Source: Chloroflexota bacterium (lineage in GTDB: Bacteria; Chloroflexota; Anaerolineae; Anaerolineales; Anaerolineaceae). From it: a stretch of DNA of 32,391 nt. Shown in pieces: positions 8,797-29,531 of this stretch. The position numbers and the translations under genes are program-made. The stretch's first letter is position 1; the number at the start of each line of letters is the position of its first letter. Under the pieces are notes generated by a model. It saw nothing but the letters and a program-made list of their open reading frames with translations, searched no databases and was not told the origin of the DNA. Location of the stretch: NCBI GenBank assembly GCA_029265085.1, contig JAJUJY010000030.1, forward strand, positions 1 through 32,391, written 5' to 3'.

Positions 8797-9177
8797 ATGA
8801 AGGTAAAAGAAATCATCGCCATCACCGAAGGTAGGGTCATAAACTCCTCAGCCGATTTAAACCGAGAAATCAAAGGTGGTTTTGGTGCAGACCTGATGAG
8901 TGACGTTTTAGCTTCCATTCAGCCGGAAGCCGTCCTGTTAACCGGATTGTGTAATCCGCAGGTTGTCCGCACAGCGGTTATGGCCGATGTTGCCGCGATT
9001 GTGTTGGTGCGCGGCAAACAACCCCCACCCGAAACGCTGGAATTAGCCCGGCAGGAAGAAATTCCACTGATCACTTCTCCCTTTGGTATGTTTGAACTTT
9101 GCGGGCGCTTGTATCGCGCTGGGTTAACCAGTCTGGAAATGCCCGTTCAGGAAGATAACAACTGTTCATGTGATTAA
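8797..9177 (+). CDS. DRTGG domain protein, hydrogenase-associated (copy 1)
   Basis: A 126-residue DRTGG-domain protein (the fold of the regulatory part of some pyrophosphatases and phosphotransacetylases, where nucleotide sensing is suspected). Signs are the N-terminal IIAITEGRVI, the central KGGFGADLMSDVLA, and a following segment in which a ligand pocket is usual. It ends in NNCSCD. Proteins of this type are commonly found beside bifurcating FeFe hydrogenases and are sometimes labelled iron-sulfur binding hydrogenase, although no cluster motif is evident here. AAGGGTCAGG upstream supports the ATG. A terminator-like hairpin follows at once. A second copy lies at 10271-10612. Confidence 0.8.
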   Translation: MKVKEIIAITEGRVINSSADLNREIKGGFGADLMSDVLASIQPEAVLLTGLCNPQVVRTAVMADVAAIVLVRGKQPPPETLELARQEEIPLITSPFGMFELCGRLYRAGLTSLEMPVQEDNNCSCD

Positions 9178-9186
9178 TTAACCAAT

Positions 9187-9210
9187 GCAGCCAGGGATGA
9201 CCCTGGCTGC
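9187..9210 (+). terminator. hairpin terminator after DRTGG copy 1
   Basis: A perfect 10-bp GC-rich stem (9187-9196 with 9201-9210) with a 4-base loop is followed by GCTTTATCCTTTCC. The weak T-tract suggests partial read-through into the CBS-kinase gene 57 bases on. Confidence 0.6.
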
Positions 9211-9266
9211 GCTTTATCCTTTCCAGCCACTTCCATCCCCTTTATCCCAATAACAGGAATATTTCT

Positions 9267-10274
9267 ATGGATCAATCCGCACTCCATAAGTCACGGATTA
9301 TCACAGACCAAGAAGCCGAAAACATTACGCGTGTTGAAGAACTGGCCTATGAAATCAAAGTCCAGGAGGTCATGACCAATACCCCTATTGTCATGACACC
9401 CGACATGAACATGGAACACGTGCTGGAACAATTCCGCCAGGCGCGGATTTCCGGTGCTCCGGTGGTTGAATCCGACCGTTTAACCGGCGTGATCAGTATT
9501 GAGGACTTGATTCGCTGCCTGACAAACGCCGACCTGCAAGCCACAGTCGCCAAGTACATGTCTTCTTCGCCAATCACGGTCAAAGACACCGACCCGGTTG
9601 TAGAAGCACTTAAAATGTTTGTCAACGCCAAAATTGGCCGCCTGCCAGTTGTGGATAAAAACGAGAAATTGGTCGGCATCTTAACCAAAGGCGATGTTAC
9701 ACGCGGTATATTAAAAGCACTCCAGCAAGATTACCAAACAGAAGAAGTTCGCAAATACCGCGCTTCGCATCTATTTGAAGATATTGAATCGGAACGCACC
9801 AGCCTGATCCTGCGCTACAACATCAAGCAAGGCGATTTCACGCATGGCGGTGCTGCCTCCAGCAAAATTAAGCGAGCCTTAATCCGCCTGGGCGCAAACC
9901 CGCAAATTGCCCGCCGCTGCGGAATTGCCACCTATGAAGCCGAGATGAATTTAATTATCCACACTACCGATGGCGGTGTGATCCGGGTAGAAATTGAACC
10001 CCATCAAATTTCTATTGATGTGTATGACTACGGCCCCGGCATCAAGGACGTAGAACTGGCTATGCGCCCTGGTTACTCTACCGCAACAGAAAAAATCCGC
10101 GAATTAGGTTTTGGCGCTGGCATGGGTCTGGTGAATATTTCTCGATGTGTAGATTCAATGAAACTTGAATCAGTTTGGGGCAAAGGCACCCGTTTGAGAA
10201 TGAAAATCTACCTACAACAACCCGAAACAGTCGGTGAAGGCTATCCGGCCAAAAATCAGGAGAATCCATCATGA
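9267..10274 (+). CDS. CBS-pair protein with GHKL (anti-sigma-type) ATPase domain
   Basis: A 335-residue cytoplasmic protein. Two CBS domains (about 32-90 and 95-150), which usually bind adenine nucleotides, are followed by a histidine-kinase-like/serine-kinase ATPase domain (about 180-315). N box EAEMN is at 224-228, G1 DYGPG at 254-258 and G2 GFGAGMGL at 281-288. There is no phosphoacceptor HisKA domain, so it resembles RsbW/SpoIIAB-type switch kinases rather than a sensor histidine kinase. This fusion is known next to FeFe-hydrogenase genes. Its 3' end overlaps the second DRTGG gene by 4 bases, so the two are probably translationally coupled. The substrate is unknown. CAGGAA upstream supports the start. 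Confidence 0.85.
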   Translation: MDQSALHKSRIITDQEAENITRVEELAYEIKVQEVMTNTPIVMTPDMNMEHVLEQFRQARISGAPVVESDRLTGVISIEDLIRCLTNADLQATVAKYMSSSPITVKDTDPVVEALKMFVNAKIGRLPVVDKNEKLVGILTKGDVTRGILKALQQDYQTEEVRKYRASHLFEDIESERTSLILRYNIKQGDFTHGGAASSKIKRALIRLGANPQIARRCGIATYEAEMNLIIHTTDGGVIRVEIEPHQISIDVYDYGPGIKDVELAMRPGYSTATEKIRELGFGAGMGLVNISRCVDSMKLESVWGKGTRLRMKIYLQQPETVGEGYPAKNQENPS

Positions 10275-27324: not shown

Positions 27325-27326
27325 TT

Positions 27327-28427
27327 ATGGATGTCACCCAATTTTCGCAATCATTTCGCGATGCCGACCTGGTTCAAGGCGTCATCCGTGAAATTCGCCG
27401 GACAGTCACGCAGCCCTGGGTATTAATGGAAATTTGCGGTGGGCAAACCCATGCCATCATGCAGTATGGATTAGACCAGCTCCTGCCCCCGGAAGTGGAA
27501 TTAGTTCATGGTCCTGGTTGCCCTGTTTGTGTCACTCCGCTGGAGTTGATTGACAAAGCCCTCGCCATTGCAGCACAACCCAATGTGATTTTCTGTTCAT
27601 ACGGCGATATGCTGCGCGTGCCAGGCTCAAACCAGGATTTGTTTTCGATCAAAGCGGCTGGTGGAAAAGTCCGCGTGGTTTATTCGCCGCTCGACGCAGT
27701 AAAAATTGCCCAAGAGAATCCAGACCAGCAGGTCGTATTTTTTGCAATTGGTTTTGAAACGACTGCGCCGGCAAATGCGATGAGTGTCATTCAAGCCAAA
27801 GCCCTCGGATTAAAAAATTATTCCGTCCTGGTATCTCAGGTTTGCGTTCCCCCAGCCATGCATGCGATCCTGGGTTCTCCGCATAACCGCGTCCAGGGAT
27901 TTTTATTGGCCGGACATGTATGCTCAGTGATGGGTTACTGGGAATATCCGCCCATTGCTGAAAAATACGGCGTTCCCATGACTGTGACCGGTTTTGAACC
28001 GTTAGATTTAGTTCAGGGCATTCTGGTTAATATCCAGATGCTCGAGGCTGGAAAAATCACGGTTGAAAATGCTTACCCGCGATTGGTAACCAAAGAAGGT
28101 AATCGGTCTGCTCAAGCAATTATCAACAAGGTATACCAACCAGTGGATCAGAACTGGCGCGGAATTGGAACCATACCGGCCAGCGGTTGGGGATTACGCC
28201 CTGAATGGGCTGATTTTGATGCCGCACAGCGATTCGATGTGGGACATATTCAAACCAAAGAATCACCCATTTGCATTGCCGGCCAAATCTTGCAGGGGAT
28301 GAAAAAGCCATCGGAATGCCCTGCCTTTGGTTCATTGTGTTCGCCAAAGAATCCATTAGGTGCGCCGATGGTTTCCAGCGAGGGCGCTTGCTCAGCTTAT
28401 TATCGCTTTGCGCGTACCAACGATTAA
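27327..28427 (+). CDS. hypD: hydrogenase iron-cofactor assembly protein HypD
   Basis: A 366-residue [4Fe-4S] scaffold on which the iron with its CN and CO ligands is built. Conserved active-site thiols are C37 (EICGGQTHA) and C65/C68 (HGPGCPVC). GFETTAPA and the C-terminal cysteines (ICIAGQ, CPAFGSLC, GACSAYYR) that hold the iron-sulfur cluster are also seen. The start is two bases after the hypC stop; the ribosome site lies in the hypC end. A normal-length protein with no missing key residue. Confidence 0.97.
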   Translation: MDVTQFSQSFRDADLVQGVIREIRRTVTQPWVLMEICGGQTHAIMQYGLDQLLPPEVELVHGPGCPVCVTPLELIDKALAIAAQPNVIFCSYGDMLRVPGSNQDLFSIKAAGGKVRVVYSPLDAVKIAQENPDQQVVFFAIGFETTAPANAMSVIQAKALGLKNYSVLVSQVCVPPAMHAILGSPHNRVQGFLLAGHVCSVMGYWEYPPIAEKYGVPMTVTGFEPLDLVQGILVNIQMLEAGKITVENAYPRLVTKEGNRSAQAIINKVYQPVDQNWRGIGTIPASGWGLRPEWADFDAAQRFDVGHIQTKESPICIAGQILQGMKKPSECPAFGSLCSPKNPLGAPMVSSEGACSAYYRFARTND

Positions 28428-28451
28428 AATACAGGACATTAAAGGATCATC

Positions 28452-29531
28452 ATGGAAGAAACATCCTTACCGATCATAGAAGGGCCAGTTTGCCCGATGC
28501 CCCTGCGCCATAATGAAAAAATTGTCATGGGACACGGCAGCGGTGGACGAATGACCCAGGAATTAATTGAAGGTGTTTTTAAACCTTTCCTTTCCAGCCC
28601 GCCATTAAATGCCGGAAACGACTTTGCACGGGTTGACCTGCCTGCTGGAGCAGCATTCCAAGGAAATCTGGCTGTATCCACCGATTCTCACATCGTTTTT
28701 CCTCTCTTTTTCCCCGGCGGTGATATTGGCAAGCTGGCTGTATGTGGAACTGTAAACGATGTCAGTATGTCAGGCGCAATTCCACTGTACTTAACCGCTG
28801 GTTTTATTTTAGAAGAAGGTCTTTCTGTCGATCTTCTTCAAAAGGTGATTTCCTCAATGCAGGCAGCTGCTCAAGAAGCAGGAGTGCAGATCATTGCAGG
28901 GGATACTAAAGTGGTTGAAAAAGGAAAAGCCGATGGGCTGTTTATCAACACTGCCGGTGTTGGGTGGATCCCACCACATTCCAACATTGGGGGAGACCAG
29001 GCAAAACCCGGTGATGTCGTCATCATCTCAGGCACAATAGGCGATCACGGGATTGCCGTGTTGGCTGAACGCGGTGAGCTTGGCTTTGAAACAGACGTAG
29101 AATCTGATGTTGCCCCACTGAATCATCTCATCCGTGCCGTTTTGAATGCAGCACCGCATACGCATGTTTTGCGCGATCCAACCCGCGGTGGTCTGGCAAC
29201 AACTCTGAATGAAATCGCAGGACAATCAAAAGTTTCTATTCTGCTCGATGAGAAATCAATCCCCGTAAAACCGGCTGTACGGGCTGCCTGCGAGATGTTA
29301 GGCTTTGACCCACTCTATATTGCCAATGAAGGCAAAGTAATCGTTATCGTCCCTTCTGACGAGGCTGAAGCAGCTTTAAATGCGCTTAAAGCGCACCCTT
29401 ACGGCACGATGGCTGCGCGCATCGGTGTCGTGAATGACTCTCCGGCAGGTCGTGTTCTCTTACGAACATTAATTGGCGGAACCAGAATCCTGGATGTTCT
29501 GGCTGGTGAAATGCTTCCGAGAATCTGTTAA
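28452..29531 (+). CDS. hypE: hydrogenase cyanide-ligand synthesis protein HypE
   Basis: A 359-residue PurM-like ATPase that dehydrates the carbamoyl group on its C-terminal cysteine to thiocyanate. The protein ends in PRIC, with the reactive C359 as last residue, and has GHGSGGRM near the start of the core and GTVNDVSMSGA. The first 22 or so residues extend beyond the usual start of the core. AAAGGA supports ATG 28452. Its stop overlaps that of the convergent serine hydrolase gene within TTAA at 29528-29531. Confidence 0.97.
   Translation: MEETSLPIIEGPVCPMPLRHNEKIVMGHGSGGRMTQELIEGVFKPFLSSPPLNAGNDFARVDLPAGAAFQGNLAVSTDSHIVFPLFFPGGDIGKLAVCGTVNDVSMSGAIPLYLTAGFILEEGLSVDLLQKVISSMQAAAQEAGVQIIAGDTKVVEKGKADGLFINTAGVGWIPPHSNIGGDQAKPGDVVIISGTIGDHGIAVLAERGELGFETDVESDVAPLNHLIRAVLNAAPHTHVLRDPTRGGLATTLNEIAGQSKVSILLDEKSIPVKPAVRAACEMLGFDPLYIANEGKVIVIVPSDEAEAALNALKAHPYGTMAARIGVVNDSPAGRVLLRTLIGGTRILDVLAGEMLPRIC

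What the first reader, a model, noticed from the sequence alone, without database searches (positions are those of the whole stretch)
8797..29531. NiFe (Hox-type) hydrogenase combined with a bifurcating-type HydB/HydC module
The sequence shows HoxH, HoxY and a HoxU/NuoG-like protein on the same strand as a HydC and a HydB that carries the extra C-terminal two-cluster ferredoxin domain. That tail is the hallmark of HydB in electron-bifurcating FeFe hydrogenases, yet no FeFe catalytic subunit or HydEFG lies in the window, while a full hypABCDEF and hoxW set does. The nearest described case known to me is the HydABCSL NiFe hydrogenase of Acetomicrobium mobile. The inference is that this organism makes or uses H2 with NAD(P)H and ferredoxin together, with an additional plain diaphorase. 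The 21-kb arrangement with the DRTGG/kinase/PHP genes may be an undescribed variant.
Basis: partly seen in the sequence, partly recalled or inferred. Interest (0 to 1): 0.75.

Follow-up and report, generated by a model that had tools for sequence, protein, structure and literature searches.

The report
NiFe hydrogenase with two flavin modules
Judged by its genes, an Anaerolineae bacterium makes a hydrogen enzyme of the NiFe electron-bifurcating kind together with a second, cut-down copy of its flavin module that ends soon after a metal site whose identity specialists dispute.

Summary
Window 8797-29531 is one co-directional gene run for a NiFe hydrogenase. HydL, HydS, HydA and HydB1 each match Acetomicrobium mobile HydABCSL (PDB 7t2r) better than any other solved structure (HydC1 was not put to that search). 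HydB1 has the ferredoxin tail and all cluster ligands but one N-terminal cysteine; HydA keeps A1-A5 and has no H-cluster. 26 of 27 relative genomes tested have no FeFe hydrogenase domain, so HydC1B1 most likely serves the NiFe enzyme.

What the two key papers do not describe, in the parts I read, is a large Anaerolineae lineage of this enzyme and a conserved second pair, HydC2-HydB2. HydB2 has no tail but is not a plain diaphorase: 55 of 55 (window included) keep three Cys + His of the disputed [2Fe-2S]/Zn site; five ordinary tail-less HoxF-type proteins lack it. One genome has only HydC2B2 with HydASL, others only HydC1B1. Best reading: one HydASL core served by two exchangeable NAD modules, one bifurcating, one probably not. 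Nothing biochemical was tested.

The parts
8797..9177 (+). DRTGG-domain protein, accessory/regulatory
   Evidence: PF07085 38.3 bits
9267..10274 (+). CBS pair + HATPase (kinase-like), accessory/regulatory
   Evidence: PF00571, PF02518, PF13581; upstream of hydL in 38 of 53 loci
10271..10612 (+). second DRTGG-like protein
   Evidence: PF07085 27.9 bits; 40 of 53 loci
10637..11407 (+). PHP-domain protein (perhaps the HydP of A. mobile; inference)
   Evidence: PF02811 26.2 bits, just under the cut-off of 26.4; 41 of 53 loci
11585..12094 (+). HydC1, [2Fe-2S] thioredoxin-like subunit (cluster C1)
   Evidence: PF01257 150.5 bits; C93, C98, C134, C138 in 58 of 58 rows
12105..12659 (+). HATPase protein (perhaps HisK; inference)
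   Evidence: PF02518 60.9 bits; 46 of 53 loci
12680..13048 (+). Trx-like [2Fe-2S]-type protein (perhaps HydD; inference)
   Evidence: PF01257 23.4 bits, below its cut-off of 24.8; its Cys are kept in only 26 of 53 rows
13111..14892 (+). HydB1, flavin subunit with two-cluster ferredoxin tail
   Evidence: 7t2r_B 855.8 bits; B1, B2-site and eight tail Cys present, one of four B5 Cys replaced
15089..15568 (+). HydC2, second [2Fe-2S] subunit
   Evidence: PF01257 160.4 bits; C85, C90, C126, C130 in 54 of 54 rows
15579..17216 (+). HydB2, tail-less HydB paralogue that keeps three Cys + His of the disputed site
   Evidence: 7t2r_B 600.2 bits; AlphaFold2 model
17217..18107 (+). FocA-type formate transporter
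   Evidence: PF01226 264.7 bits; TIGR04060 279.4 bits, below its cut-off of 290.1; TIGR00790 240.7, over 232.3
18415..20379 (+). HydA, NuoG-like wire subunit with clusters A1-A5, no H-cluster, molybdopterin-like C-terminal domain
   Evidence: 7t2r_A 306.2 bits; alignment; cluster ligands in 68-69 of 69 rows
20395..20937 (+). HydS, NiFe small subunit
   Evidence: 7t2r_E 169.2 bits
20952..22385 (+). HydL, NiFe large subunit
   Evidence: 7t2r_D 588.9 bits; the four nickel Cys in 80-81 of 81 rows
22354..22947 (+). hydrogenase maturation protease (HoxW-type)
   Evidence: TIGR00072 48.9 bits, cut-off 47.45
23169..23657 (+). cyclic-nucleotide-binding-domain protein, no further domain found
   Evidence: PF00027 47.2 bits
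23712..29531 (+). hypA, hypB, hypF, hypC, hypD, hypE

Best explanation
The run encodes a HydABCSL-type (NiFe-Bfu) electron-bifurcating hydrogenase plus its maturation set. Electrons move between the NiFe site in HydL, the HydS cluster, HydA clusters A3-A2-A1, HydB1 cluster B1 and FMN; FMN exchanges a hydride with NAD(H) and, through HydC1 and the HydB1 tail (B3/B4), low-potential electrons with ferredoxin (inferred by homology to A. mobile). In a fermenter the likely direction is H2 production from NADH plus reduced ferredoxin. HydC2-HydB2 is a second NAD module for the same HydASL core. It keeps the FMN domain, the B1 cluster and the HydC cluster but lacks the ferredoxin tail and B5, so it should pass electrons between NAD(H) and HydA without ferredoxin. 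The cell could run the same hydrogenase in two gears: coupled to ferredoxin, or NADH-only when partners keep H2 very low. Shown: gene content, ligands, conserved linkage, natural single-module loci. Inferred: docking of both modules on HydA, the direction, and the gear idea.
For: HydL, HydS, HydA, HydB1 and HydB2 match 7t2r best (HydL 588.9 bits vs 425.2 MvhA and 405.4 HoxH; HydB1 855.8; HydB2 600.2; HydA 306.2; HydS 169.2). HydB1 has B1 (4 Cys), the B2-site (C438, C476, H525, C531, C536) and eight tail Cys. HydA keeps A1-A5 ligands. FeFe domain in 1 of 27 relative genomes. Both HydB types lie upstream of hydL in 50 of the 59 loci with at least 8.2 kb upstream. Each module can occur alone: in L045/L105 HisRS is followed by C2-B2-A-S-L-protease-hyp, and the only HydB-type match at E <= 1e-60 in that genome is HydB2; in the L050 and L052 genomes HydB1 is present and the next match scores 391.7 and 361.8 bits, against 529-603 for known HydB2s in the same search. 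15 of the 16 genomes (of 33) without a formate dehydrogenase alpha over cut-off have B2C2 at the locus, which ties the pair to the hydrogenase.
Against: No biochemistry. The window's own genome is not held, so a FeFe partner elsewhere cannot be excluded for it; one relative, Pelolinea submarina, has FeFe domains. In the HydL tree A. mobile HydL groups with Chloroflexota Hox-like enzymes that have tail-less HydB/HoxF (96/83), not with the window clade, and the node uniting these with the window is unstarred (92/89). In the HydB tree HydB1 is not the sister of A. mobile HydB. HydB1 has three of four B5 Cys, and 26 of 62 HydB1-type rows align with only one; Feng et al. regard B5 as a dead end (passage), Schut et al. 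as part of the conserved core (passage). HydB2-only is a single genome of 2.1 Mb that may be incomplete. Retention of the metal site in HydB2 is not explained by a simple loss of bifurcation.
Confidence: 0.65

Rival explanations
1. HydC2-HydB2 still bifurcates, handing low-potential electrons from the retained B2 site straight to ferredoxin or another acceptor, or to the HydB1 tail in a mixed complex.
For: C438, H525, C531 and C536 in 55 of 55 HydB2; H525, C531 and C536 are three of only 8 invariant columns among the last 39; HydC2 cluster Cys in 54 of 54. Five tail-less HoxF-type proteins lack the site (L091, L092, L093, L095; L104).
Against: No B3/B4 and no B5, C476 replaced in 55 of 55. If the site is Zn, as assigned in T. 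maritima HydABC and StnB, it carries no electrons.
Confidence: 0.12
2. HydC1B1 and HydC2B2 sit in one asymmetric complex, for example one on each HydA of a (HydASL)2 dimer.
For: Both pairs are neighbours in most loci; the A. mobile enzyme is a dimer of pentamers with A4/A5 at the dimer interface (passages), and A4/A5 ligands are conserved here.
Against: Each pair occurs alone in some loci.
Confidence: 0.12
3. HydC2B2 is the NAD module of a formate dehydrogenase, and FocA marks a formate operon fused to the hydrogenase.
For: FocA lies next to HydB2; in the five closest loci (L001-L005) an FdhA gene sits between FocA and HydA; FdhA lies within the fetched flanks of 24 of 80 loci.
Against: No FdhA or remnant in the window's 307-base FocA-HydA gap; 15 of 16 genomes without FDH alpha over cut-off keep B2C2, Pelolinea's complete genome among them; the L050, L052 and L080 genomes have FDH alpha but no B2C2 at the locus. 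FocA itself is found in only 14 of 80 loci.
Confidence: 0.08
4. HydB1/HydC1 serve a FeFe HydA encoded elsewhere, and the NiFe enzyme is an ordinary Hox type run by HydC2B2.
For: HydB1 also matches FeFe HydB of A. woodii strongly (7q4v 824 bits); one relative genome (L044) has FeFe domains.
Against: 26 of 27 relative genomes have no FeFe domain; HydB1 is directly followed by HydA-S-L in loci without B2C2.
Confidence: 0.03

Closest known systems
NiFe-HydABCSL (NiFe-Bfu) of Acetomicrobium mobile, PDB 7t2r/7t30
   Same: HydB with ferredoxin tail, HydA A1-A5 without H-cluster, NiFe HydS/HydL, extra regulatory or maturation genes in the operon
   Different: Second HydC2-HydB2 pair, DRTGG/CBS-kinase genes, FocA and linked hyp genes here; HydB1 lacks one B5 Cys; separate branches in the HydL and HydB trees
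Group 3d Hox hydrogenase (HoxEFUYH; 5xf9 and the Hox-like Chloroflexota loci L091-L095; the group name is recalled)
   Same: NuoEF-like NAD module plus HoxYH-like NiFe subunits
   Different: HoxU-like subunit is 243-258 aa, HoxF-like subunit has no tail and no B2-site ligands; window HydA is 654 aa and both HydBs keep the site
FeFe HydABC (A. woodii 7q4v/8a5e, T. maritima 7p5h)
   Same: HydB with tail and the three Cys + His site
   Different: H-cluster HydA replaced by HydA without H-cluster plus HydS/HydL
FDH-FeFe-Bfu of Clostridium autoethanogenum (PMC9304861, passage)
   Same: Formate and H2 enzymes combined with a HydBC core, as in relatives with FdhA in the cluster
   Different: NiFe, not FeFe; the window itself has no FdhA

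Membership tests
NiFe-HydABCSL (NiFe-Bfu) | HydB with FMN domain, B1, and a two-[4Fe-4S] C-terminal ferredoxin domain | tested here: met
   (eight tail Cys present in HydB1)
NiFe-HydABCSL (NiFe-Bfu) | B2-site ligands Cys438, Cys476, His525, Cys531, Cys536 in HydB | tested here: met
   HydB1 CCHCC
NiFe-HydABCSL (NiFe-Bfu) | B5 [2Fe-2S] in the N-terminal domain of HydB | tested here: inconclusive
   three of four Cys (CCRC) in HydB1; variable in relatives
NiFe-HydABCSL (NiFe-Bfu) | HydA with A1-A5 and no H-cluster | tested here: met
NiFe-HydABCSL (NiFe-Bfu) | HydS and HydL NiFe subunits closest to those of A. mobile among solved structures | tested here: met
NiFe-HydABCSL (NiFe-Bfu) | HydL and HydB in one clade with the A. 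mobile proteins apart from Hox and FeFe | tested here: inconclusive
   A. mobile branches elsewhere within the same larger groups
NiFe-HydABCSL (NiFe-Bfu) | coupled H2/NAD(H)/ferredoxin reaction | not testable with these tools
   needs purified enzyme
Group 3d Hox hydrogenase | short HoxU and tail-less HoxF as the only NAD module | tested here: not met
   HydA 654 aa, HydB1 tailed
Group 3c Mvh hydrogenase | MvhA as closest relative, and Hdr partners | tested here: not met
   MvhA 425.2 against 588.9 bits; no Hdr subunit among the Pfam families of the run
FeFe HydABC | H-cluster domain | tested here: not met
   PF02906 not among the 15 Pfam families listed for HydA; NCBIfam FeFe models match only its N-terminal 230 residues, under cut-off
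Bfu family, applied to HydB2 | C-terminal ferredoxin domain (B3/B4), part of the family definition in PMC9304861 (IPR017896, whose meaning I recall) | tested here: not met
   absent in 55 of 55
Non-bifurcating HoxF/NuoF, applied to HydB2 | absence of the His of the B2 site (PMC9304861, passage) | tested here: not met
   H525, C438, C531, C536 kept in 55 of 55

The most novel reading that the evidence does not exclude
Anaerolineae run one NiFe core (HydASL) with two interchangeable flavin modules, a bifurcating HydC1B1 and a HydC2B2 that evolution cut soon after the disputed HydB metal site. HydB2 would be a natural minimal protein holding only FMN, B1 and that site, so metal analysis of HydB2 alone could settle whether the site is [2Fe-2S] or Zn, and show that it has a role apart from feeding or hinging the ferredoxin tail.
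Probability: 0.35. Interest if true: 0.68.

Novelty: new variant of a known kind. Interest (0 to 1): 0.52.

Why it matters
Schut et al. 2022 counted 6 NiFe-hydrogenase HydB sequences, mainly in one clade, from Synergistetes, plus Halorhabdus forms (PMC9304861, passages and part of section 4). Here 80 loci (the best 80 of 138 found, nearly all with records titled Anaerolineae or other Chloroflexota) carry this hydrogenase, 62 of them with a HydB1-type gene in view, so the enzyme is widespread in this fermenting group. More sharply, two cryo-EM groups disagree about one HydB metal site: [2Fe-2S] with four Cys + His in A. mobile, Zn with three Cys + His as a hinge in T. maritima; Zn is also reported in StnB. 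HydB2 keeps three Cys + His, has no C476 and no tail, and so offers a clean test. The four-ligand pattern fits a Zn site better, but that is inference from sequence.

Tried and rejected

Papers. Passages: PMC8880783, PMC9304861 (also the first part of its section 4), PMC9499530, PMC10482914. Passages with nothing on a HydABCSL-type enzyme: PMC10102598, PMC3971608 (reports Mvh, Mbh and group I 'HydABC' NiFe hydrogenases in Chloroflexi), PMC5459899, PMC5460018 (putative bifurcating hydABC in a genome close to I. album), PMC5736913, PMC7382037, PMC11650866. Search listings only: the other papers, PMC11406978 and PMC7887784 among them. Supplements were not readable. 'Not described' is limited to these.

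Row choices: the tool kept 80 of 138 loci, so counts lean to close relatives. One search dropped HydB rows under 500 aa; it left 62 HydB1-type rows (which include second, FDH-linked or fused copies) and 55 HydB2 rows, window included. Genomes searched were chosen from those loci: 27, 12, 33. Trees used chosen subsets (60 and 42 rows).
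Full report
What is there. The window is probably a whole 32.4-kb contig (the longest contig listed for its HydL is 32391 bases). Its nearest relatives are Anaerolineaceae: HydL is 80-84% identical in the five closest loci, Bellilinea and Thermanaerothrix among them. From 8797 to 29531 all the genes named run on the + strand. Gaps are under 100 bases except after PHP (177), HydB1 (196), FocA (307) and the protease (221). 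Order: DRTGG, CBS-HATPase, DRTGG-like, PHP, HydC1, HATPase, Trx-like, HydB1, HydC2, HydB2, FocA, HydA, HydS, HydL, protease, cNMP-domain protein, hypABFCDE. HisRS (7251-8519, -) and a His tRNA (7076-7150, -) flank it on the left.

What kind of enzyme. Against all solved structures HydL, HydS, HydA, HydB1 and HydB2 each match the A. mobile NiFe-HydABCSL chains best. HydC1 was not put to that search. The alignments show the CGIC and CLSC nickel motifs with a C-terminal extension that must be cleaved, all HydA cluster ligands A1-A5, and in HydB1 the B1, B2-site and B3/B4 ligands. One of the four B5 ligands is an arginine. HydA matches A. mobile HydA well over residues 3-347 and only weakly (20.2 bits) in the molybdopterin-like C-terminus.

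Trees. The HydL tree (42 rows) puts the window with 17 Chloroflexota loci (100/99), outside Mvh and the solved HoxH. A. mobile HydL falls with Chloroflexota Hox-like enzymes next to the window's larger clade. So the NiFe large subunits of tailed and tail-less systems are interleaved, and swaps of NAD modules in evolution are likely (inference). In the HydB tree (60 rows, quick method) the window's HydB2 sits in one group of 18 HydB2 rows (SH-aLRT 100) and HydB1 in another group of 20 (99); HydB2 does not fall among the plain HoxF rows. Two very long rows (L096 and L084, both labelled B2 by best hit) stand outside the HydB2 group and make the deep part unsure.

Is the HydB1 module really for the NiFe enzyme? 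The FeFe H-cluster family is absent from 26 of 27 relative genomes; the exception is Pelolinea submarina (L044, three matches). Among the 53 loci with at least 9.9 kb upstream of hydL, 51 have a HydB1-type and 47 a HydB2-type gene there, and 37 have the exact nine-gene order. The other 16 are listed: four start inside HydB1, so C1 is out of view; four have C2-B2 before C1; six lack C2-B2; L045 and L046 show only C2-B2. L046's genome has a HydB1-type gene further up the same contig.

The second pair. HydB2 is 50.6% identical to HydB1. All 55 HydB2 proteins (54 relatives and the window) lack the tail and the B5 Cys, have Ser, Ala, Val or Thr at 476, and keep C438, H525, C531, C536 and the B1 ligands. 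Over the whole protein 154 of 543 columns are invariant, over the last stretch 8 of 39, and H525, C531 and C536 are three of those eight. The chain ends 3 to 20 residues after C536, eight in the window's own protein. Plain tail-less HoxF-type proteins of Chloroflexota (L091, L092, L093, L095, and L104 of Bellilinea) lack the site. L045/L105 is a natural case in which the regulators and HydC1B1 are absent between HisRS and C2-B2-A-S-L-protease-hyp-methyltransferase, flanked as in the window. L050 and L052 are the reverse. This is why I read the pairs as alternative modules on one HydASL core.

Formate. FocA lies between HydB2 and HydA in the window and in L001-L005; in those five an open frame of 922-959 codons for FDH alpha follows FocA (TIGR01591 833.5 bits for L002). 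The window has no FdhA there and no remnant, so a loss or move in this lineage is likely. 17 of 33 relative genomes have FDH alpha over the cut-off; 15 of the 16 others have HydC2B2 at the locus, so HydC2B2 does not depend on FDH. Some of these genomes may be incomplete.

How far known. HydABCSL is described (PMC8880783), and Bfu enzymes are classified in PMC9304861, whose main text has no word beginning with 'anaerolin' and counts 6 NiFe members mainly in clade 49. That paper selects HydBs by four InterPro domains, one of which I recall as the ferredoxin domain, so HydB2 proteins would have been left out by construction (inference). It also says that the His is kept in virtually all bifurcating HydBs and absent from non-bifurcating homologues (passage); HydB2 breaks that rule or bifurcates. 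The metal-site dispute is documented. HydL relatives at E <= 1e-100 occur in 105 of 400 sampled genomes of the phylum, 13 of them at 70% identity or more.

Verdict. Function remains inference.

Noticed in passing
L058:1845-5003, and HydB-type frames of about 1030-1070 aa in L040, L080, L084, L086-L090, L103: HydB-type proteins near NiFe HydA-S-L; in L058 the part after the HydB core is a Fer4_20 + Pyr_redox_2 (NfnB/GltD-like FAD) region with no Fer4 tail family listed, which may link the hydrogenase to NADPH. Only L058 was run against Pfam.
   Followed up: partly
L024:13144-15912, L046:2348-5116, L016 near 13578, L029 near 18928: FDH alpha genes near the hydrogenase read as two frames around one stop (TGA in the L024, L046 and L016 genomes) where L002 has the catalytic-type Cys: probable selenocysteine.
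   Followed up: partly
L030:12201-17220 (same gene pattern in L036, L042): A second HydC-HydB-FdhA set right after the hydrogenase protease; L030's HydB copy is tailed, so it may be an electron-bifurcating formate dehydrogenase.
   Followed up: partly
window 23169-23657: Cyclic-nucleotide-binding-domain protein with no further domain between the protease and hypA; a match, sometimes weak, in 24 of 80 loci.
   Followed up: no
window 12680-13048: Trx-like protein whose three Cys are kept in only 26 of 53 rows, so it may have a non-redox role.
   Followed up: no
window 1967-6166: Large alpha-amylase/pullulanase-type protein with X25 domains and weak CBM20 and fn3 matches, in keeping with a carbohydrate fermenter.
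   Followed up: no
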